Shown here: positions 417 through 21,481 of the stretch, piece by piece
Numbering within the stretch: position 1 is the stretch's first letter
Layout of the letters: each line of letters opens with the position of its first letter
Source: an uncultured Spirochaetales bacterium
Lineage (GTDB): Bacteria; Spirochaetota; Spirochaetia; Sphaerochaetales; Sphaerochaetaceae
Length of the DNA: 41,042 nucleotides
NCBI GenBank assembly: GCA_949295505.1
Contig: CASFLH010000039.1
Coordinates: 1 to 41,042 of the forward strand
Direction of reading: 5' to 3'
Made by a program: the position numbers and the translations under genes
The notes under the pieces: generated by a model
Told to the model about the DNA's origin: nothing
Databases searched by the model: none
The model's input: only the letters and a program-made list of their open reading frames with translations

Positions 417-2075
417 CTAAAGCAAAGAATACCTGACAAACAGGAATGCCTGAGGAATGAATCTCTGGGCTCCCTGCTCATTCTGATAATTCCACTTGTA
501 AGGCAGATATACATCAGCTCCTATAGCAAGATGGGAGCTGAATCTGTATGAGGCAGATAAGCCTAATGCAAGGGTGTACTCCATTATGTTCTCTTCCTCT
601 CGCCAGTCTTCATTCACCGTGTCTATGGAATTCTTATTGAAAGCGATGCCATGCATGCCGTGCATCATGAAATCCATATTTCCTCCAAGGGAAAGTCCAT
701 AATCAGCAATATATTCGGAGCCGATTGAGAATTTCAGGGTATCCGGACCTTCTGGATATCCTGAAAAACCGATTTCACTCCCTCCTGTGATTTTATGTCC
801 CAGGATCCAATCGTAGTTGTAATCCCTGCCATCTTCACCGAGTTTGGCTCTGTTCAGATACAGATATGGCATTGTGTACACAGCTTCCGCATATGAATGC
901 AGATAATCATCATTGACAATAGATGTATTCTGTACATTCAGGAGGAAACCAAATGCATTTGGCATGAAATTTCCTTTCTCATATGAAAGCTGGAACTGGT
1001 CCATTACAGCTTCGAAATGAATCATCCAGGAGGGAAGGAATGACCAGGATATGTCAAAGCCGAGCATGTTATTTGCTTCATCGCCAGGCCTTAGTGCCGC
1101 GTCCTCTGAGAAATTGTTAAATGAATGCGGAATCATCATAGGGATGAAAACTCTCCAGTCAAAAATGCTGTCAGACTGGAACAAGCTGCCGATTGTAGCC
1201 GCAAAGATAAGATTGTCTGTCGGTGAGAATTCGAATCTGTGCGCGGCTCTTATCTGATGATTGCCGGACATCTGGAATGGTGCAAAAGTCAGAGGGTCAA
1301 TCTGTTGGTCAAAATGCGTTATATCCAGATAATAGCTGAAGAGATCCGAATAGAATGTCACCCTTGCGTATTCTTCATAGCTGTAATTATCAGAAATGAA
1401 GAGGTTCCCGGTAACTCCATGCCCATATGATTGCCTGTTCCTTGCAAGCTGGAAATTGAACCAGTCATTGCCGACGGAGATTCCAGCCTTGAATGGCTGA
1501 TAAGACTGTGTAAGATGCTTGAGAACGCCAAGCTTCCCATCTTCAATGGATACTAGAGTGTAGAAGTTCGTCCAGTGTTCCATAGGATCGGCGGCTGCCA
1601 TCATCGGGTCTTTTTCCATGAATTCAAGGTACAAATCCGCAGTGCTGGCAAATGAGGCGTTGACGGAACCTGCAATCATGGGATCAATATCGCGATATGG
1701 CACAAAGAATTCATAGCTGTCTATGGTTCCATGGAGCAACGCATTGGCACCGCCGTAGATATCAACATCAAAATTCAGCGAACCTTCATTATATATAGAG
1801 TTCTCGCCTTTGAGTGTGTTTACCAACTCTGATTTCTTCTCAAGGATAGCCGTGGAAGATGAAGCAGGAATACGATCCAGTGCGGATATCAGTTCATTTG
1901 CAGAGACAGGAGTCACTGCAGGATATCTTACTCCTGCCGCCTGGCAAAGGAGCATTACGTTCTTATATTCTTCATCCTGAAGGTCATAAACTCTCTGTGC
2001 TGCTTCTGAAGAAAAGGCCGGGCACAATACGAAAAGCAGCAGTATGGATATGATGAGTTGTATTCTTGCTTTCAT
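417..2075 (-). CDS. Outer-membrane beta-barrel protein, Wzi-like, paralogue 1
   Basis: The 552-residue product starts with a classic signal peptide (MKARIQLIISILLLFVLCPAFSSEA) and then shows alternating aromatic and hydrophobic strands through to the C-terminus, typical of an outer-membrane barrel. The block with NRQSYGHGVTGNLF and the HRFEF block resemble the capsule-assembly Wzi family seen in spirochaetes and Bacteroidetes. The product at 4473-6185 shares the same landmarks in the same order: GR/NR-x3-S-x-G-x-G-x2-GNL, HRFEF, FxxFxPxxIxH, YNY and MxHG. The two are therefore paralogues. The role is probably surface or polysaccharide related, but this rests on weak family resemblance. The 200-base gap upstream is shared with the divergent RloA-like gene. 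Confidence 0.6.
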   Translation of the reverse strand: MKARIQLIISILLLFVLCPAFSSEAAQRVYDLQDEEYKNVMLLCQAAGVRYPAVTPVSANELISALDRIPASSSTAILEKKSELVNTLKGENSIYNEGSLNFDVDIYGGANALLHGTIDSYEFFVPYRDIDPMIAGSVNASFASTADLYLEFMEKDPMMAAADPMEHWTNFYTLVSIEDGKLGVLKHLTQSYQPFKAGISVGNDWFNFQLARNRQSYGHGVTGNLFISDNYSYEEYARVTFYSDLFSYYLDITHFDQQIDPLTFAPFQMSGNHQIRAAHRFEFSPTDNLIFAATIGSLFQSDSIFDWRVFIPMMIPHSFNNFSEDAALRPGDEANNMLGFDISWSFLPSWMIHFEAVMDQFQLSYEKGNFMPNAFGFLLNVQNTSIVNDDYLHSYAEAVYTMPYLYLNRAKLGEDGRDYNYDWILGHKITGGSEIGFSGYPEGPDTLKFSIGSEYIADYGLSLGGNMDFMMHGMHGIAFNKNSIDTVNEDWREEENIMEYTLALGLSASYRFSSHLAIGADVYLPYKWNYQNEQGAQRFIPQAFLFVRYSLL

Positions 2076-2233: not shown

Positions 2234-2254
2234 ATATGTGAAATAACCACATAT
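2234..2254. promoter_or_regulatory. Inverted-repeat operator candidate before RloA-like gene
   Basis: ATATGTG (2234-2240) and CACATAT (2248-2254) form a perfect 7-bp inverted repeat with a 7-base spacer. It lies immediately before the Shine-Dalgarno AAGGAG (2262-2267) of the ATPase gene. A TTGATT hexamer at 2227-2232 sits 17 bases before CATATT (2250-2255), so the repeat would lie within the promoter core and could bind a repressor. No regulator gene is present in the two-gene cassette. Promoter assignment is tentative because the resulting leader would be very short. Confidence 0.4.
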
Positions 2255-2275
2255 TATTTACAAGGAGAAGGGCTG

Positions 2276-3601
2276 ATGCTTATTAGATTTGCTGTTGAGA
2301 ATTTTCTATCTTTCAAGGATAAACAGGTGTTTTCAATGGTGGCTGCAAAACATACCAGGCATCCGGAGCATATAACTGATGTCGGGGGTAAGCGTATATT
2401 GAAGGGTAGTTTTCTTTTCGGAGCAAATGCTTCTGGGAAGTCTAATTTCATCAAAGCTGTCGCAGCAGCAAGGCATATTATCTTCTCTGGTCTTTCCGGG
2501 ATGGACAGAAAGTATTTCAGGCTGGATCCTTCATTCGCTGCCAGGCCTGGATCATTCCAGTTTGATATATACTCGAACGGGAATTTCTATTCATACGGAT
2601 TTGCTTTTTCTTATTCAGATAATATGATCATCTCCGAATGGCTGTATAGAATAAACGGCAATAATGAGGTATGCATATTTGAGCGTCTGATTGAGGATGG
2701 TCACACTGTAATCCATACTGGTGCAAAACTCAATGAGGATAACCAGTATCGTTTCAGAATATATGGTGAAGATATTAATAATACCAAGACACTCCTCCAG
2801 GACATCTCCGAAAAAGAGATTGTGAAGGATGATGATTTCAAGGCTTTCAGAGATGTCTGGAAGTGGTTCGGTGAATTGGTGATTATCTTTCCTGATATGC
2901 CTCTCGGGCTAAATACCTGGAGAAGCCTGGTATCTGATAACCGAGTTTATCAGATGGTTCGGACCTTTGACACTGGTATCAGATCTGTTTCAATCGAAGA
3001 GCAGTCTTTGGATAAGATCCTGAGCGGAACACCTGAGCGGATAAGAGAAAGGTTCTTTGATGATGTTGAAAGGATAATCAAGACAGGAGAGAGAAAAGGG
3101 ACGAATATCATACTGGGGGATGATCTCTATTCATTTGAGATGAGAGGCAATGAGCTGGTGGCTTTCAAGCAGCTTATGGATCATGGCAATCCCGATGAGC
3201 TGTTTTCATTTGACGATGAATCAGATGGAACAAAGCGGTTGTTTGATCTGCTGCCTTTTGTTACTGCTGTTAAAGAATCTGGTGTGATATTGATTGATGA
3301 GATAGACCGCAGTTTCCACACAAATCTGATAATCAGGTATATCGAATTGTTTTATGACAATACAAAGAATCTGAATATGCAGCTTATCGCCACGCTTCAT
3401 GATGTAAATCTGATGGATATGGATATTATCAGGCAGGATGAAATCTGGTTCATACATAGAGATGAGATTACCAATGCTTCGGATATGTATTCACTGAATC
3501 GATTCCAGATCCGATTCGACAAAAAAGTTATCAAGGATTACCTGATTGGGCGATTCGGTTCAGTCCCATTGTTTGGTCAGATGGAGGAAAACAATGAATA
3601 A
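2276..3601 (+). CDS. AAA15/RloA-type ATPase, defence-like
   Basis: The product is a 441-residue ABC/SMC-fold ATPase of the COG1106 (RloA, AbiLi-like) group. The N-terminus has the typical start (IRFAVENFLSFKD) leading to a Walker A, GANASGKS, at residues 49-56. A signature-like segment, DDESDGTKRLFDLLP, precedes Walker B (VILIDEID, residues 337-344; catalytic pair D341/E342). TLHDVNLMD follows as the His-switch region. Length is normal for the family. AAGGAG stands 8 bases before the ATG. The stop overlaps the start of the RloB-like gene by 8 bases, so the pair is co-translated. In such two-gene modules the ATPase is thought to sense or gate, and the TOPRIM-like partner acts on nucleic acid. 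The gene looks AT-richer than its flanks. Confidence 0.85.
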   Translation: MLIRFAVENFLSFKDKQVFSMVAAKHTRHPEHITDVGGKRILKGSFLFGANASGKSNFIKAVAAARHIIFSGLSGMDRKYFRLDPSFAARPGSFQFDIYSNGNFYSYGFAFSYSDNMIISEWLYRINGNNEVCIFERLIEDGHTVIHTGAKLNEDNQYRFRIYGEDINNTKTLLQDISEKEIVKDDDFKAFRDVWKWFGELVIIFPDMPLGLNTWRSLVSDNRVYQMVRTFDTGIRSVSIEEQSLDKILSGTPERIRERFFDDVERIIKTGERKGTNIILGDDLYSFEMRGNELVAFKQLMDHGNPDELFSFDDESDGTKRLFDLLPFVTAVKESGVILIDEIDRSFHTNLIIRYIELFYDNTKNLNMQLIATLHDVNLMDMDIIRQDEIWFIHRDEITNASDMYSLNRFQIRFDKKVIKDYLIGRFGSVPLFGQMEENNE

Positions 3602-4466
3602 TCCCTATAGATTGAGGTCATCAGATTTGTTCATACGGCTTGATGATGGTACCAATGATAAACCAAGACGTATTGTTTTCCTGTCTGTCGAAGGAAATGA
3701 AACCGAAGTGGATTATTTTCGTCATCTTGACAGGTTCGGAACTCAGCTGGGGATTAACGCGATGGTACGAGTCGAGGTAATCAGAAGGAGCAATAATGAT
3801 ACGAGAAGCGATCCTTGGGCTGTTTTCGCATTGCTGGAAGAAATGGTGGATCTTCATGATAATGGTGCGGATGTCTCCCGATTCGCTGAACTTCTCCCTG
3901 ATGGCTATGATATTGATTTTGTGAGAACATTTCTTCTTGATCCTGACCAGATATCTCTCGCAAAGCGTCAGGATTTTCTGGGTAAGATGCAGGGTAGAAG
4001 CATTGATATCGCATATTTCAGATTTGTTTCAGAATGTGATGAACGCGATGATAGTTTCTGTGTTTTGCTTGATAAGGATTCCTCAAGTCATAGTTCTCAG
4101 CAGCTGAATGAAATATGGCAGAAGTGCCGGGAGAAGGGATATGGATTCTATCTTTCTTCGCCATGCTTTGAATTCTGGCTGCTCTTGCATTTGTGTGACG
4201 TGCAATCAGATTATGCCAATAAGATTGGATTCATAAGGCATAATCCACGTATCTCGAATAGACATACTTTCCTGAGCTATGAGGTCTCTCGCAAAGCAAG
4301 GCACGCAAAGAGAATTTCCGAGACTGTCTTCCGGAAAGAATACCTGCCTCGTATTGATTATGCAATCAAGCAGTCTCATGCCTTTGAAACAGATGTGTCC
4401 AGTCTCATATCTTCGGAAAATGCGGGGACCAATATCGCTGATCTTGTAACATTCCTTCGTCAGTAA
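3594..4466 (+). CDS. RloB-like TOPRIM-type protein, partner of the ATPase
   Basis: The 290-residue product belongs to the RloB family. FLSVEGNETEVDYF near the N-terminus carries the TOPRIM-style acidic residue E33 with E36 and E38 nearby. VLLDKD (D160, D162) is the DxD motif, and SSPCFEFWLLLHL is a hallmark RloB block. I chose the ATG at 3594 because GGAGG lies 7-8 bases before it inside the ATPase gene and because family members start close to this point; a longer frame opens at 3546. The ATGAATAA overlap with the upstream stop implies coupled expression. RloB proteins occur next to RloA-type ATPases in restriction-linked loci and in abortive-infection systems such as AbiL (family knowledge). 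Nuclease activity here is inferred. Confidence 0.85.
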   Translation: MNNPYRLRSSDLFIRLDDGTNDKPRRIVFLSVEGNETEVDYFRHLDRFGTQLGINAMVRVEVIRRSNNDTRSDPWAVFALLEEMVDLHDNGADVSRFAELLPDGYDIDFVRTFLLDPDQISLAKRQDFLGKMQGRSIDIAYFRFVSECDERDDSFCVLLDKDSSSHSSQQLNEIWQKCREKGYGFYLSSPCFEFWLLLHLCDVQSDYANKIGFIRHNPRISNRHTFLSYEVSRKARHAKRISETVFRKEYLPRIDYAIKQSHAFETDVSSLISSENAGTNIADLVTFLRQ

Positions 4467-4472
4467 AAGATG

Positions 4473-6185
4473 CTAAAAGAGGTTGTATTTCAGGGTTACC
4501 GTCCACTGGATGTCGAACTGGTTTCCTGGCATGTTGTCGAAGTTGACTGCATAGATGAAGTCTATTGATGAAGAGAGCATCAGGTTGTCAAGAATATAGT
4601 ATTCGCCATCGAGCCCGATATTATATGTGTATTCAATCTCCCCATTCTCTTCAGGGTCGAAAGGATTCATTGTCGCGAGCCAGCCTGGAACTGCCGTGAT
4701 TGTTCCGTCATATTTCTTGGCGATGCTGTTTTCATCAGTTACGCCATGGACCATGAAGAACAGCTTAATGCCTGCACTCCAGTCCTGGGGTACTGTATAG
4801 GCAAAGCCGGTATAAACCGTAAAAGCATCGGAGCCGAACGGGAAACTCAGGTATTCCCTGTGGTATCGGCCGTTGCTCAGTCTTACAGAACCGACATAAT
4901 CGAGAGCATAGTTGTATCGTGAATCGCTGTTATAGCTGTCCTTGTGGTACATGAAGGGAGAAGCGTAGACAGTTTCAAGATTGATTGAGAAGTATCCGTT
5001 CCCATGCGGAATTGCAGCCCTTGCTCCGCCCATGATTCCCCACATATTGAGAGTGGCATCTTCTGCCGGTGCCTTTGGCTCTCCGCCAACTGAAAGGTCA
5101 TCGACAGCGAATGAGAGATATAGCTGCAGATTCCTGATGGGGGCGAATTCTATTTCAGCAGAAGCAAGGGAGTTTGCGTTTGCAGGAATGTAGAGCCCAT
5201 GGAGTATCAGCAGCGGGCTGAATGCCCTGAAATCTATTGTATTATCAGGAGAGTGATACATTATCGCTTCATTCAGTGTCAGCCTCAGCTTATCCCATAG
5301 CATCCTGAATTCGAATCGGTGGCCGATGAACATCTGTGTCCCATGAATCTTGTCAGTGAAGCTCTGGTAGTAATTCATCGGATGAGAGAAGAAGCTCACC
5401 AGCATTGTGTAATCAAACCAGGAATTGTTTGAAGCTGAGAGGCTTATATAATCGTGATAAGGCAGTGTGTTGCCAAGAATCAGATTGCCCATTATGCCAT
5501 TGCCCCATGATACCTGTCCTCTGCCAAGCGAGAATGATATGTATTGATTCCCGATGGATATGAATGAATTGTCCGTGATATCCGGATCAATGGAGCCATT
5601 GGAAATGAATGGGATGTTTGTTGCGAATGATGAACTGAATCTGTCTTCATCAGCGGAATCCAGGAAGCGATAGACACCATCATCATTAATCCCTCTGGAA
5701 TTCGTTGCATCCCTGAATCCAAGAGAGATACCGATTCTTCCTGCAAAATAATCGCTGACATATAAGCTGAACTGAGCTCCGATCAGTTTGTCATTAAGTA
5801 CATCAACAGCCCAATCGCTGCTTGTGTCAAAGTTTTTATTGTTGCTATGCGCTGCCATTGACGGAGTCAGGAAAAGATTGAAATCAGCTGACACGGCAGT
5901 TCCATTGCTGCTGGAAAGCTGCTCCTCGATGATTTCATACAGGTGCTTTGCTGCAGTGCTTGATGGAGTGATTCTGTCCAGCTGCTGCCGAAGGTCAGCT
6001 TCTGTCCATGGGCGTGCCCCCTGCGGTGCCGCATGACCTTCCATTGTGTATAGCGCATCCACGAATTCATAGATAGGGGATGAGAGCGGAATGATGGCAG
6101 CATTTCCGGAGGCATAAATAAGTGATCCTGGTATAAAGAGGATCGCGGCGAGGATGACTGTTATGATTTTCTTTCCTGCTCTCAT
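4473..6185 (-). CDS. Outer-membrane beta-barrel protein, Wzi-like, paralogue 2
   Basis: The 570-residue product has a signal peptide (MRAGKKIITVILAAILFIPG...YASG), an N-terminal helical stretch and a long run of amphipathic strands ending in ...YNLF. A terminal aromatic residue is typical of proteins inserted by the BAM machinery. Motifs shared with the 417-2075 product include GRGQVSWGNGIMGNL, HRFEF and FFMVHG. I chose the ATG at 6185: it opens the signal peptide, has GGAG 7 bases upstream, and lies just after the rfbB stop. An upstream extension to 6293 would run into rfbB. Placement directly downstream of rfbB suggests a role in surface glycan assembly or export, which is inference. Its stop is only 6 bases from the convergent RloB-like stop. 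Confidence 0.6.
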   Translation of the reverse strand: MRAGKKIITVILAAILFIPGSLIYASGNAAIIPLSSPIYEFVDALYTMEGHAAPQGARPWTEADLRQQLDRITPSSTAAKHLYEIIEEQLSSSNGTAVSADFNLFLTPSMAAHSNNKNFDTSSDWAVDVLNDKLIGAQFSLYVSDYFAGRIGISLGFRDATNSRGINDDGVYRFLDSADEDRFSSSFATNIPFISNGSIDPDITDNSFISIGNQYISFSLGRGQVSWGNGIMGNLILGNTLPYHDYISLSASNNSWFDYTMLVSFFSHPMNYYQSFTDKIHGTQMFIGHRFEFRMLWDKLRLTLNEAIMYHSPDNTIDFRAFSPLLILHGLYIPANANSLASAEIEFAPIRNLQLYLSFAVDDLSVGGEPKAPAEDATLNMWGIMGGARAAIPHGNGYFSINLETVYASPFMYHKDSYNSDSRYNYALDYVGSVRLSNGRYHREYLSFPFGSDAFTVYTGFAYTVPQDWSAGIKLFFMVHGVTDENSIAKKYDGTITAVPGWLATMNPFDPEENGEIEYTYNIGLDGEYYILDNLMLSSSIDFIYAVNFDNMPGNQFDIQWTVTLKYNLF

Positions 6186-6228
6186 CTTGAATCTCCGTAT
6201 CAACGATATCATAGCACTCACTCTTGAT

Positions 6229-7173
6229 TTATCTGTACCATTCAATAGTCTCTTTGAGTTTCTCCGCAAATGGGGAAATGGCAATCGGGCCAAGTTCGTT
6301 CTGCAGCTTTGTGTCGTCTATGGCATATCTCAGATCATGGCCTTTCCTGTCTGCAGTGAATTCAATGAGATCCTCCGGCGCATTAAGGAATGAGAGAATC
6401 ATCTTTATGAGTTTGATATTGCTTATCTCAAAGTTTCCACCGATGTTGTAGACTTCACCGCTTCTGCCTCTGTGGATCACTGCGTCAATGGCTCTGCAGT
6501 GATCTTTGACGTATATCCAGTCTCTGACATTCTCTCCAGTTCCATATACTGGGATTGTCTTTCCCGAAAGGGCATTGCTGATGGTTTTGGGTATCAGTTT
6601 CTCTTCATGCTGAAAGGGACCATAGTTGTTAGAGCAACGTGAAATCGTCACATCAAGGCCATATGTCCTGTGATACGCAAGCGCAAGAAGATCAGCGGCT
6701 GCTTTGGAGGCGCTATAAGGTGAGCTTGGGCGTAGGGGAGATGTTTCCGTGAACTTCAGGTCAGGCCGCGCGAGGGGAAGATCACCATACACTTCATCCG
6801 TTGATATCTGATGAAAACGCTGCACGCCATGTATTGCTGCAGCCTCTAGCAGGACTTCCGTCCCCATCACATTCGTCTCCAGAAAAATAGAAGGATTCTC
6901 TATCGATCTGTCCACATGGCTTTCTGCCGCGAAATTGACAACCATATCTGGCTTGTTCTCTGCGAATGTTTTTGCAACGGTTTCCCTGTCCCTGATGTCA
7001 CCTTTGATGAAGCTGAAATTCCTGTGGGGCATCGCTTGCTGCAGATTCTCGATTTTCCCCGCATAGGTAAGTGCATCATAGGCTATGATGCGGTAATCAG
7101 GATGGGTATCCAGCATATAGTAGACGAAGTTCGTGCCGATGAAGCCGGCAGCACCGGTGACTAAGATCTTCAT
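6229..7173 (-). CDS. rfbB: dTDP-glucose 4,6-dehydratase
   Basis: A 314-residue extended short-chain dehydrogenase. KILVTGAAGFIG at the N-terminus is the NAD-binding glycine motif. STDEVYGDL supplies the Thr-Asp-Glu catalytic triad of RmlB enzymes, and YSASKAAADLL is the YxxxK motif. NNYGPFQHEEKLIPK and the late ENVRDWIYVKDHCRA block are characteristic. It converts dTDP-glucose to dTDP-4-keto-6-deoxyglucose, the entry step to dTDP-rhamnose and other deoxysugars. It is slightly shorter than the usual 340-360 residues. An ATG at 7191 would add six residues; neither start has a strong ribosome binding site, and 7173 fits the family. The partner genes rfbA, rfbC and rfbD are not in the window. Confidence 0.9.
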   Translation of the reverse strand: MKILVTGAAGFIGTNFVYYMLDTHPDYRIIAYDALTYAGKIENLQQAMPHRNFSFIKGDIRDRETVAKTFAENKPDMVVNFAAESHVDRSIENPSIFLETNVMGTEVLLEAAAIHGVQRFHQISTDEVYGDLPLARPDLKFTETSPLRPSSPYSASKAAADLLALAYHRTYGLDVTISRCSNNYGPFQHEEKLIPKTISNALSGKTIPVYGTGENVRDWIYVKDHCRAIDAVIHRGRSGEVYNIGGNFEISNIKLIKMILSFLNAPEDLIEFTADRKGHDLRYAIDDTKLQNELGPIAISPFAEKLKETIEWYR

Positions 7174-7216
7174 ACCTTTTTTATATGTCATTTACCAATC
7201 ATTGTGAATGCATGAA

Positions 7217-7247
7217 TGAAAAAGGGCTGCCATCTGACAGCCCCTTT
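7217..7247 (-). terminator. Terminator after the VPVEV-repeat protein gene
   Basis: On the minus strand GGGGCTGTC-AGAT-GGCAGCCC is followed by TTTTTC, a standard intrinsic terminator. It sits between the gene at 7263-8099 and the downstream rfbB gene. The pair of A- and T-runs on either side could make it bidirectional. Confidence 0.75.
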
Positions 7248-7262
7248 GGGAATATATGGCGC

Positions 7263-8099
7263 TCAGAAGCGTGAAGCTTCCTGTATGAATTCCTCCGGAT
7301 TGATTTCCGCACTGACGGTCACAACGTTCCTTGGTGCAAAAGCCTCAGTTGCGTTCTCAGCTTCTTCCTTTGTGTAGAATGGAAGCACTGCAAAGAAGCA
7401 GCCATTCTCGCTGAAAACGAGCGTGTCCTCTCCGAAGGACGCCTCGATAGATTCCTCCGTGAGTCCATCGCGTTCCTTTATCGCGACGACGGAGAGATCG
7501 TATGCCATTTGTTCCGCAGCCTTTGATTCCTCTTTCAGGACATCATGGAAGCTGAGAACAGCATCAGGTGTTCCCACAGCAACTTCCTTGATTACCTCTA
7601 CCGGGACCTCCTTGACGACTTCAACCGGGACCTGGATTTCCCTGATGCGTTCGACAGGAACCTCTACTTCCCTTACGACCTCTACCGGAACTTCCTTGAC
7701 AACCTCAACAGGAACTTCTTTTATGACTTCTTTGACTTCTGTCTGTGCAGCGGCTCTCGTGCCAGTACCGAATACCTCTGGAGCAACCTTGCCACGGAGC
7801 ATTGGATCATCTTTCGGCTCTGTATAAAGCGAGCTGTCATATGCATTTGGGGACAGCTTATCTATCGTATCCTTGTATTCAGGCTCTCCTTTCTTTGCCG
7901 CCATGACTCCGATCTGAATGAGAATCAGTCCGATAAGCACCGGGAAGAGGCGGGTGAGGACAGAATAAATCTGATCTTCTGTTATCTGATATGCAGGTAC
8001 GATGAAATTGATGAATACCAGAGTGAATGCTGCCAGCACGATAAGGGTTATCACGATGCTGGTGATAACCAGCTTTGCTGTTTTCGAGGGTTTGGCCAT
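7263..8099 (-). CDS. Two-TM protein with VPVEV repeats and degenerate GGDEF-like domain
   Basis: The 278-residue product has two membrane helices (about 10-35 and 45-66). A linker (about 118-172) follows, made of repeated EVPVEVVKE/EVIKE-type octapeptides. The C-terminal domain (about 178-278) runs FHDVLKEESKAAEQ...YDLSVVAIKERDG...FGEDTLVFSENGCFFAVLPFYTKEEAENA. That order mirrors a GGDEF diguanylate cyclase: helix, the DLS strand, the 'R-x-sD..fR-GGDEF' turn, then 'LLP.t..eeA'. The signature itself is replaced by ENGCFF, so catalysis is unlikely. I chose the ATG at 8099 because GGAGG stands 5 bases before it. Possible roles are nucleotide sensing or envelope scaffolding. The GGDEF assignment is my reading of the pattern, not a database hit. 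Confidence 0.6.
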   Translation of the reverse strand: MAKPSKTAKLVITSIVITLIVLAAFTLVFINFIVPAYQITEDQIYSVLTRLFPVLIGLILIQIGVMAAKKGEPEYKDTIDKLSPNAYDSSLYTEPKDDPMLRGKVAPEVFGTGTRAAAQTEVKEVIKEVPVEVVKEVPVEVVREVEVPVERIREIQVPVEVVKEVPVEVIKEVAVGTPDAVLSFHDVLKEESKAAEQMAYDLSVVAIKERDGLTEESIEASFGEDTLVFSENGCFFAVLPFYTKEEAENATEAFAPRNVVTVSAEINPEEFIQEASRF

Positions 8100-8302
8100 T
8101 GATTCCTCCGCGGCGTATTGCATACGCTTTTGCATATTATATCAGTGCTATATGATGATTAGCAAGGAAATATTCGTCAGAAAAACGGCTGTTTTGCACC
8201 GAAAACCGCATTTCAGGCCATCAAATGGCACTCCTGGCCTACTTGATGCTGCTTTCAGAGTGCAGTATTCCATAAGCTATGGCAGCTATTATCGGATATG
8301 GA

Positions 8303-8824
8303 ATGGATAGTGTTAAGGAAGTTGGGGACAGGCTGAAAGCCGGAGAAGTCGGGATCTTCCCCTGCGACACGATTTACGGACTTTGTGGCATCGCCACTGA
8401 GGAAACGGCAGACAGGCTTTATGAGATAAAGAGGAGGCCGCAATCGAAATCATTCATCACGCTGATGACGATGGATGATGTCAGGAGATCACAGCTTTCC
8501 GTTCCCGATGACATACTCTCGCGCTGGCCAGCGCCGCTTACCGCGATTCTTGCCTCTCCAGACGGAACGACAGCGGCTGTGCGTGTTCCGGCAGACCCGT
8601 TTGTTCAGGCTGTTATGGCCATCTGTGGCCCGGTTTTCTCGACATCCGTCAATTTCTCAGGAGAGAAGAGTCTTCTCACGTTCCAGGATATTCTTCCTGT
8701 ATTTGAGTCCTCTGTTGATTTCATCGTGAATGCACCGGAGGTGAAAGGAGGAATGGCGTCAACGCTCGTCGACGCCACTCATTATCCATATAAAGTGCTG
8801 AGGCAGGGAGCCTACGTCCTCTGA
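8303..8824 (+). CDS. tsaC: Sua5/YrdC-type threonylcarbamoyl-AMP synthase
   Basis: The 173-residue single-domain protein matches the YrdC/TsaC fold: LKAGEVGIFPCDTIYGLCG, KRRPQSKSF (the KRxxxKP-like nucleotide site), WPAPLTAIL, AAVRVPADPF and VFSTSVNFSGE. It makes threonylcarbamoyl-AMP from threonine, bicarbonate and ATP for the t6A37 tRNA modification. TsaB and TsaE, needed for the transfer step, are encoded at the other end of this window. I chose the ATG at 8303, since GGATATGGA precedes it; an ATG at 8279 would add eight residues. The stop overlaps the end of the convergent DUF1015 gene by 13 bases. A YciO-type paralogue cannot be excluded. Confidence 0.8.
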   Translation: MDSVKEVGDRLKAGEVGIFPCDTIYGLCGIATEETADRLYEIKRRPQSKSFITLMTMDDVRRSQLSVPDDILSRWPAPLTAILASPDGTTAAVRVPADPFVQAVMAICGPVFSTSVNFSGEKSLLTFQDILPVFESSVDFIVNAPEVKGGMASTLVDATHYPYKVLRQGAYVL

Positions 8825-20283: not shown

Positions 20284-21297
20284 TCAGTCGTTCTCAGTCA
20301 TGATGCTGAGCCACTTTGCCTGAAGCTCCTCCGTCTTCTCCTGCGGCGTTGCCCCGCTTCTGAAGAGCACGGACGGCTTCGGTGCGTAATCAAACGCTTC
20401 AGGAAGCTCAATCGCGCTGTTGACAGGATACATGGAATTGGCGACTGCGATATCAATCTGGGCTTCTGTGAGGATGAAGTCCACGAAAGCCTCTGCCTCT
20501 TCTCTCATGTCAGTGCCCTTGACTATTCCAATGCCCTCAATCGTCGCCTCATGGCCTTCAGGGAATACCAGTGCCTGATAGCGCGTCGTGTTGTCATTCA
20601 TCACATGATAGACAGGGCTTGTCGTGTAGGAAAGGACGATCGGCGCTTCTCCCTCCGTGAAGAGGCCATAGGCCGATGACCATCCGTCAGCGATCGTGAG
20701 AGCATTTTCCTTCATTGCTTCCCACCATGACACGAACTCATCGCCATCTCCGTAGATATTGTATGTCCAGAGGAGAAGTCCAAGGCCGACAGAAGATGTC
20801 CTTGGATCGATGAGTATCACGTTGTCCTTGTACTCGGGATCAGCAAGGTCGGAAAGGGATTGAGGTTTATCGAGTCCGCATTCAGAATCCCATACGAATG
20901 CGAATGCACCGTAGTCAAATGGAATAAGGCGGTTCTCCGGATCGAATCTGAGCTCTTCCGGGATATCGCTGATGATGGGGGAGTCATAGCTCTCGAGATA
21001 AGGGTATGCCCTGTAGGCGAAATCATCTGTGATGCCGAGGATGACATCAGCCCTGGTGTCTTCTCCTTCCAGCTCGACGCGGGAGATCATCTCAACCGCA
21101 TCGCCTGCGCTGACAAGATTCACCTTGATTCCTGTCTCTTCCTCGAATGCCGGGATAAGTGTCCCTGCCGGGCCCCAGTCACTGGCGAACGAATCATAAG
21201 CATAGACTGTGAGGACATCCTCCTCAGCCGCTGCCTGTGCCATGACAGCCGTCATGGTCACTGCTGCGAAAAGCAGTACAAAGAGTGCCTTCTTCAT
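20284..21297 (-). CDS. thiB: Thiamine-binding periplasmic protein (ThiB-like)
   Basis: The 337-residue binding protein has a signal peptide (MKKALFVLLFAAVTMTAVMAQA) and then LTVYAYDSFASDWGPAG, the typical ThiB opening. VELEGEDTRADVILGITDDF and the late SAYGLFTEGEAPIVLSYTTSP block support thiamine or TPP binding. The ATG at 21297 has GGAG 6 bases upstream. It is the first gene of the operon and follows a TPP riboswitch, so it should be repressed when TPP is plentiful. Whether the ligand is thiamine, its phosphate or TPP cannot be read from the sequence. Confidence 0.9.
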   Translation of the reverse strand: MKKALFVLLFAAVTMTAVMAQAAAEEDVLTVYAYDSFASDWGPAGTLIPAFEEETGIKVNLVSAGDAVEMISRVELEGEDTRADVILGITDDFAYRAYPYLESYDSPIISDIPEELRFDPENRLIPFDYGAFAFVWDSECGLDKPQSLSDLADPEYKDNVILIDPRTSSVGLGLLLWTYNIYGDGDEFVSWWEAMKENALTIADGWSSAYGLFTEGEAPIVLSYTTSPVYHVMNDNTTRYQALVFPEGHEATIEGIGIVKGTDMREEAEAFVDFILTEAQIDIAVANSMYPVNSAIELPEAFDYAPKPSVLFRSGATPQEKTEELQAKWLSIMTEND

Positions 21298-21339
21298 AAG
21301 CATCTCCAAAAAGATAGATTATCCGGGGATTGAAAAATG

Positions 21340-21411
21340 CCGTTCCCTTCGCTGGTATTACCCAGATCAGGTTCGAGGGTATGATCTCAGGCCTTAGCCA
21401 CCCCTAGACGA
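21340..21411 (-). promoter_or_regulatory. TPP riboswitch (THI element)
   Basis: On the minus strand the conserved TPP aptamer is complete: GGGGTG, CTGAGA, ACCC, GAACCTGATC and AATACCAGCG followed by AAGGGAA. A short closing stem (TCGT with ACGG) brackets it. It lies about 43 bases before the thiB start. I see no strong terminator hairpin with a U-run between aptamer and start codon, so control of translation initiation is more likely. A possible promoter is TTGACT (21446-21441) with TAGTGT (21422-21417) on the minus strand. Confidence 0.95.
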
Positions 21412-21481
21412 CCAAAACACTAGAACGGAAACGCCGCTGTAGTCAAGTGACAATATCATGAAGAGGCTGTATTATCACAGC

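What the first reader, a model, noticed from the sequence alone, without database searches (positions are those of the whole stretch)
2234..4466. RloA/RloB-type two-gene defence cassette inserted between paralogous barrel genes
An AAA15-type ATPase (Walker A at residues 49-56, D341/E342) overlaps by 8 bases with an RloB-like TOPRIM-type protein (E33, D160, D162). The pair lies on the opposite strand between two related outer-membrane barrel genes that share orientation. It looks AT-richer than its flanks and has its own inverted-repeat operator candidate. ATPase plus TOPRIM-type pairs (AbiL, PARIS, Gabija) are known anti-phage designs; this pair is RloAB/AbiL-like. No restriction-modification gene is next to it.
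Basis: partly seen in the sequence, partly recalled or inferred. Interest (0 to 1): 0.72.

Follow-up and report, generated by a model that had tools for sequence, protein, structure and literature searches.

The report
AbiL-type phage-defence gene pair with operator
A bacterium related to spirochaetes carries a known kind of two-gene phage-defence (AbiL-like) cassette, apparently horizontally acquired, and it brings along its own conserved 21-base control site, which hints that the pair's expression is regulated by a switch specific to the cassette.

Summary
Window 2276-3601 encodes an ABC/AAA ATPase (PADLOC AbiLi, E=4e-80). It overlaps by 8 bases a 290-aa RloB/AbiLii protein (3594-4466; Pfam RloB PF13707, E=1e-24). 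The RloB protein has intact TOPRIM residues E33, D160 and D162. The pair is a new member of the known AbiL (RloA/RloB) kind. PARIS and Gabija are only analogues.

The cassette is accessory: 5 of 48 genomes of the genus carry the close form. Its identities do not follow those of a core gene, it has the lowest GC3 in the window, and a remote relative sits on a Fusobacterium plasmid. It lies in a variable surface-polysaccharide/defence region beside conserved g7263-sua5-DUF1015. A clean empty site between the two barrel genes was not found, so "inserted between the barrels" is only partly supported.

A 21-bp palindrome, ATnTGTGAAAnnAtCACATAT, sits 35-41 bp before the ATPase start in all six close cassettes. 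It is 90% identical there, in flanks that are 28-40% identical. The ATPase start is its only perfect site in this genome.

Side finding: the same genome has a second, core ATPase-RloB pair beside gltX. It is present in 29 of 30 sampled family members and has lost its TOPRIM catalytic residues.

The parts
2234..2254 (+). 21-bp palindrome ATATGTGAAATAACCACATAT, candidate operator; lies between a TTGATT box just upstream and the -10-like CATATT/TATTAT that its right arm overlaps
   Evidence: Sequence; conserved 35-41 bp before the AbiLi start in 6 of 6 close cassettes, 90% identity against 28-40% in the flanks; only perfect site in the genome. The promoter boxes are inferred; the consensus scan did not list them.
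2276..3601 (+). AbiLi/RloA-like ABC (AAA_21) ATPase, 441 aa; Walker A 49-56, Walker B D341/E342, signature-like SDGTKR, C-terminal YLxGRFGSxP motif
   Evidence: Pfam AAA_21 9.5e-23; PADLOC AbiLi 4.3e-80; alignment
3594..4466 (+). AbiLii/RloB-like TOPRIM protein, 290 aa; E33, D160, D162; clade-specific helical insert about residues 90-150
   Evidence: Pfam RloB 9.8e-25; PADLOC AbiLii 3.3e-15; conservation; predicted secondary structure, pLDDT 85
417..2075 (-). Flanking outer-membrane barrel gene 1 (context, not part of the system)
   Evidence: No Pfam hit; family members across the genus
4473..6188 (-). Flanking barrel gene 2, weak similarity to the capsule-assembly protein Wzi (context)
   Evidence: Pfam Wzi 5e-5, below the curated cut-off
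6229..8824 (.). Context anchor: rfbB (-), g7263 (-) and sua5 (+), next to the variable region
   Evidence: g7263-sua5-DUF1015 conserved in relatives with variable content on the g7263 3' side

Best explanation
This is a horizontally acquired AbiL-type (RloA/RloB) two-gene abortive-infection cassette. The ATPase AbiLi is the sensor and restrainer. AbiLii is a TOPRIM-fold metal-dependent nuclease effector that is held inactive by AbiLi and set free when a phage product is sensed, stopping the infected cell, most likely by cutting RNA (a tRNA, as AriB of PARIS does) or DNA. Translation is coupled by the 8-base overlap, which would help keep the toxin in ratio with its keeper. Transcription starts from the cassette's own promoter, which carries a conserved palindrome and is probably repressed in uninfected cells by a dimeric regulator. 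Shown here: family membership, intact active-site motifs, overlap, patchy distribution, incongruent identities, conserved palindrome. Inferred: defence, restraint of the toxin, the nuclease target, the promoter boxes and who binds the palindrome.
For: Family matches. Active-site residues conserved in both proteins. Predicted order b1-E33-a-b2-a-b3-D160/D162-a-b4-a, as expected for a TOPRIM domain (the rule is from general knowledge of the TOPRIM family). Close forms in 5 of 48 genus genomes and in another genus, G370, whose AbiLii is closer to the window's (60%) than two same-genus copies are (51%, 46%), although its gltX is further away (81% against 87-90%). Lowest GC3 of 32 ORFs. In G323 the cassette lies at the same chromosomal neighbourhood with a second AbiL-like pair, a TOTE primase-helicase and Fic. 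A remote relative is on a mobilizable Fusobacterium varium plasmid, ATPase 35% identical. Literature: F. nucleatum AbiLii is toxic in E. coli (PMC3985639); an RloB-type toxin of Clostridium algidicarnis is neutralised by its AAA partner (PMC10440598); AriA sequesters AriB, which cleaves tRNA (PMC12409363). Palindrome.
Against: No phage test exists for this clade. For F. nucleatum AbiL, the AbiLi partner did not neutralise AbiLii in E. coli (PMC3985639), so restraint by the ATPase is not universal. Structure searches gave no significant match, so the TOPRIM fold rests on family and motif order. The consensus scan did not flag the proposed promoter. No regulator gene lies in the cassette.
Confidence: 0.8

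Rival explanations
1. A toxin-antitoxin addiction module maintained for stability, with phage defence incidental or absent.
For: AAA-RloB pairs behave as toxin-antitoxin pairs in E. coli (PMC10440598); a relative is on a plasmid.
Against: In G323 the cassette sits among defence genes; L. lactis AbiL is an abortive-infection system (named in PMC3985639 and PMC10440598). The two readings overlap mechanistically.
Confidence: 0.12
2. A domesticated housekeeping ATPase/TOPRIM pair, not defence.
For: The same genome has another ATPase-RloB pair that is core to the family; an archaeal OLD protein, Cran1, acts in the cell cycle (PMC12796447).
Against: The window pair is patchy, incongruent and has intact catalytic residues, unlike the core pair.
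Confidence: 0.05
3. A decayed remnant without function.
For: The G017 copy has lost all but about the first 62 residues of AbiLii.
Against: In the window both frames are full length and catalytic motifs are intact.
Confidence: 0.03

Closest known systems
AbiL (AbiLi/AbiLii) of Lactococcus lactis and relatives (Fusobacterium AbiL); RloA/RloB
   Same: Two-gene order ATPase then RloB-family protein; strong AbiLi and RloB profile matches; short gene overlap
   Different: AbiLii carries an extra helical insert of about 60 residues; a cassette-linked palindrome lies before AbiLi; spirochaete host; sequence identity to known AbiL-like proteins is low (35% for the F. varium ATPase)
PARIS (AriA/AriB)
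   Same: ATPase plus separate TOPRIM effector; likely sensor/effector logic
   Different: The AbiLi profile wins clearly over the AriA profile (4e-80 against 4.5e-21); AbiLii matches RloB, and no AriB model was reported for it
Gabija / OLD nucleases
   Same: ABC ATPase and TOPRIM domains
   Different: There the two domains are fused in one protein (GajA, with partner GajB); here they are separate and no UvrD-like helicase is next to them
Septu / retron PtuA ATPase
   Same: Nearest solved ATPase sequences by profile (E=0.003)
   Different: Partner is an HNH protein (PtuB), not RloB

Membership tests
AbiL (AbiLi/AbiLii; RloA/RloB) | ATPase matches the AbiLi profile | tested here: met
   PADLOC AbiLi 4.3e-80, next family AriA 4.5e-21
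AbiL (AbiLi/AbiLii; RloA/RloB) | Second gene is an RloB/AbiLii protein | tested here: met
   PF13707 88.3 bits, cut-off 31.5; AbiLii 3.3e-15
AbiL (AbiLi/AbiLii; RloA/RloB) | Adjacent bicistronic order, ATPase first | tested here: met
   8-base overlap; same order in six loci
AbiL (AbiLi/AbiLii; RloA/RloB) | Walker A/B and TOPRIM residues intact | tested here: met
AbiL (AbiLi/AbiLii; RloA/RloB) | Abortive infection against phage | not testable with these tools
   Needs phage assays
TOPRIM fold | Match to a solved TOPRIM structure | tested here: inconclusive
   No Foldseek hit at E<=0.001; VIA rows are generic Rossmann-like folds; motif and strand order agree with TOPRIM
PARIS | AriB-type second gene | tested here: not met
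   AbiLii is the only PADLOC family reported for the second protein at E<=0.1
Gabija | GajA fused ATPase-TOPRIM plus GajB helicase | tested here: not met
   Separate genes, no neighbouring helicase

The most novel reading that the evidence does not exclude
The AbiL pair controls its own promoter: AbiLi, AbiLii (through its clade-specific helical insert) or their complex binds the conserved TGTGA-N5-TCACA palindrome, so that phage sensing both frees the toxin and derepresses the operon. The alternative is a widespread host regulator that recognises this site mainly at AbiL cassettes.
Probability: 0.2. Interest if true: 0.6.

Novelty: new member of a known kind. Interest (0 to 1): 0.42.

Why it matters
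AbiL-type pairs are widely annotated, but how they are kept silent is little known; the papers read here report toxicity and neutralisation, not transcriptional control. A conserved palindrome that accompanies the cassette across genera gives a concrete, testable handle on that question. The same genome also holds a catalytically degenerate, vertically inherited relative of the pair next to tRNA-synthetase genes, a natural comparison of a defence module and its apparently domesticated form.

Tried and rejected
Clean empty site: barrel orthologues in G004 and G012 are tandem in the reverse order, G001 has an IS66 transposase gene between them, and G023 has glycan genes, so no exact empty site was found. 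Flanking repeats of an insertion: only weak chance-like repeats. RNA hairpin reading of the palindrome: stability is not conserved, with z-scores from -3.7 to +0.8 in six loci, so a DNA operator is preferred. A palindrome as a general trait of ATPase-RloB pairs: not seen outside this clade apart from a few isolated cases. A large regulon for the palindrome: only one perfect site in the own genome; about ten unlinked perfect sites across 119 family genomes. Solved-structure relatives of AbiLii: none by sequence, and no AriB, OLD or GajA chain appeared in the structure rows. Phage records: no match; IMG/VR gave two remote matches to residues 144-199 of the query, L041 and L042; L041 holds a complete ATPase-RloB pair.

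Full report
What is there. Window 2276-3601 encodes a 441-residue ATPase and 3594-4466 a 290-residue protein that overlaps it by 8 bases. The first is an AAA_21 ABC-type ATPase (Pfam 9.5e-23) and matches PADLOC AbiLi at 4.3e-80; the second matches Pfam RloB at 88.3 bits (cut-off 31.5) and PADLOC AbiLii at 3.3e-15. Walker A (49-56) and D341/E342 are conserved in five homologues. E33, D160 and D162 are conserved in 24, 25 and 24 of 25 RloB proteins. An AlphaFold2 model of AbiLii (mean pLDDT 85) puts E33 right after the first strand of the core and D160/D162 at the end of the third, the order known for TOPRIM domains; the clade has an extra helical insert at about residues 90-150. Solved-structure searches gave no significant match, so the fold assignment rests on family and motifs.

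Accessory nature. A search of 48 genomes of the genus finds the close form in five: the window, G025, G010, G323 and a truncated G017 copy. G015 and G024 have only remote, partial matches. A cassette in another genus of the family (G370) is closer to the window's (AbiLii 60%, AbiLi 67%) than same-genus copies in G025 (AbiLii 51%) and G010 (46%), while gltX shows the reverse order (81% against 90% and 87%). The two ORFs have the lowest third-position GC (0.41, 0.44; median 0.56) of the 32 ORFs of 200 aa or more in the window. A remote pair, ATPase 35% identical, sits near transposase genes on a mobilizable Fusobacterium varium plasmid. This argues for horizontal acquisition.

Place in the chromosome. 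The neighbours g7263, sua5 and DUF1015 (and in closer relatives rfbB) are conserved, and the 3' side of g7263 varies from genome to genome, with rfbB, barrel genes and glycan genes. In G323 the AbiL cassette lies between rfbB and g7263, with a second ATPase-RloB pair (its RloB frame is split), a TOTE primase-helicase, a Fic protein and other ATPases. In G027 another ATPase, next to a protein with a VEGEKTE motif, lies there. So the locus is a recurring site for such genes. The barrels themselves occur in various orders, in G001 with an IS66 transposase gene between them; no exact empty site was found, and 'inserted between the barrels' is true as an arrangement but not demonstrated as an event.

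A cassette-linked palindrome. Anchored there, mean pairwise identity is 0.90 within the site and 0.28-0.40 further upstream. Among the 155 loci held at that point, perfect matches were found only in loci that carry the AbiL cassette, and the own genome has one perfect site. Across 119 family genomes 14 hold a perfect TCACATAT-form match; four of these are the AbiL sites of G010, G017, G323 and G370, and the other ten lie at unrelated places. Predicted RNA hairpin stability is not conserved, which favours a DNA site. It falls between a TTG-type box and a TATnnT or CATATT box; these promoter boxes are inferred, and the consensus scan does not list them. The cassette has no regulator gene, so either the pair binds its own operator, as many toxin-antitoxin modules do, or a host regulator does. 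Shared ancestry of the cassettes explains part of the conservation, but not why only these 21 bases are kept.

Mechanism. From the literature: F. nucleatum AbiLii is toxic in E. coli, though its AbiLi did not neutralise it (PMC3985639); a C. algidicarnis RloB-type toxin is neutralised by its AAA partner (PMC10440598); in PARIS the ATPase AriA sequesters the TOPRIM tRNase AriB until a phage trigger appears (PMC12409363). The best reading is therefore a sensor ATPase that restrains a TOPRIM nuclease, freed on infection. The target (tRNA, other RNA or DNA) is not known.

Comparison. Membership of AbiL is met on every feature testable here; PARIS and Gabija are analogues, not families it belongs to. 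Novelty is therefore limited: a new member of a known kind, with a clade-specific insert and a conserved control site for which I found no description in the papers searched.

A relative that looks domesticated. The own genome has three ATPase-RloB pairs. The one on contig C58 lies in a conserved gene order (lipoprotein, sometimes a PHP-type gene, ATPase, RloB, LuxR-type, hydrolase, gltX, glyS) in the members of the family examined. Its RloB profile is found in 29 of 30 sampled family members, and further in a few other families. Yet its TOPRIM positions are lost: E33 is A/K/G/S, D160 is G or S, and D162 is variable across the 13 sequences. Profile comparison still confirms homology to RloB (99.8% probability). 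Its ATPase keeps Walker A but has DD in place of DE in Walker B, and CNP where the window ATPase has HDV. It is best seen as a pseudo-nuclease pair with a non-defence or regulatory role; an archaeal OLD protein with a cell-cycle role gives a precedent for such recruitment (PMC12796447).

Noticed in passing
L036 2378-3016 and 3003-4319 (G000:C58); L086-L098: Core ATPase-RloB pair in a conserved gene order beside gltX-glyS; its RloB profile is in 29 of 30 sampled family members; RloB has lost TOPRIM E33 and D160 in all 13 sequences, and the ATPase Walker B is DD instead of DE. Looks like a domesticated pseudo-nuclease pair.
   Followed up: partly
L035 8655-10680 (G000:C95): A third ATPase-RloB pair in the same genome (PADLOC AbiLi 6e-70, AbiLii 4e-16), next to an FMN/NAD oxidoreductase-like gene; its TOPRIM DxD reads D-x-E instead of D-x-D.
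   Followed up: no
L084 3463-15037 (G323): Defence island with AbiL, a second AbiL-like pair whose RloB frame is split, TOTE primase-helicase, Fic and DUF4143 ATPase between rfbB and g7263.
   Followed up: partly
L034 1-760 (G017): AbiLii is cut off after about 62 residues while the ATPase is full length; a similar stretch of about 45 nt (GGAAGGAAGAGATAAT.AGGCACTGA) lies before the cassette and just after the truncation.
   Followed up: no
L033 9773-12735 (G010) and L084 7319-10258: By sequence resemblance, a TOTE-type primase-helicase (split into pieces in G010) lies downstream of AbiL in two genomes.
   Followed up: no
L146 5370-7185 (G027): Another ATPase next to a VEGEKTE-motif protein at the g7263 hot spot.
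   Followed up: no
window 21327-21417 (-): TPP riboswitch (Rfam RF00059, 59 bits), ending just before a gene for a substrate-binding-protein-like product at 20284-21309 on the same strand.
   Followed up: no
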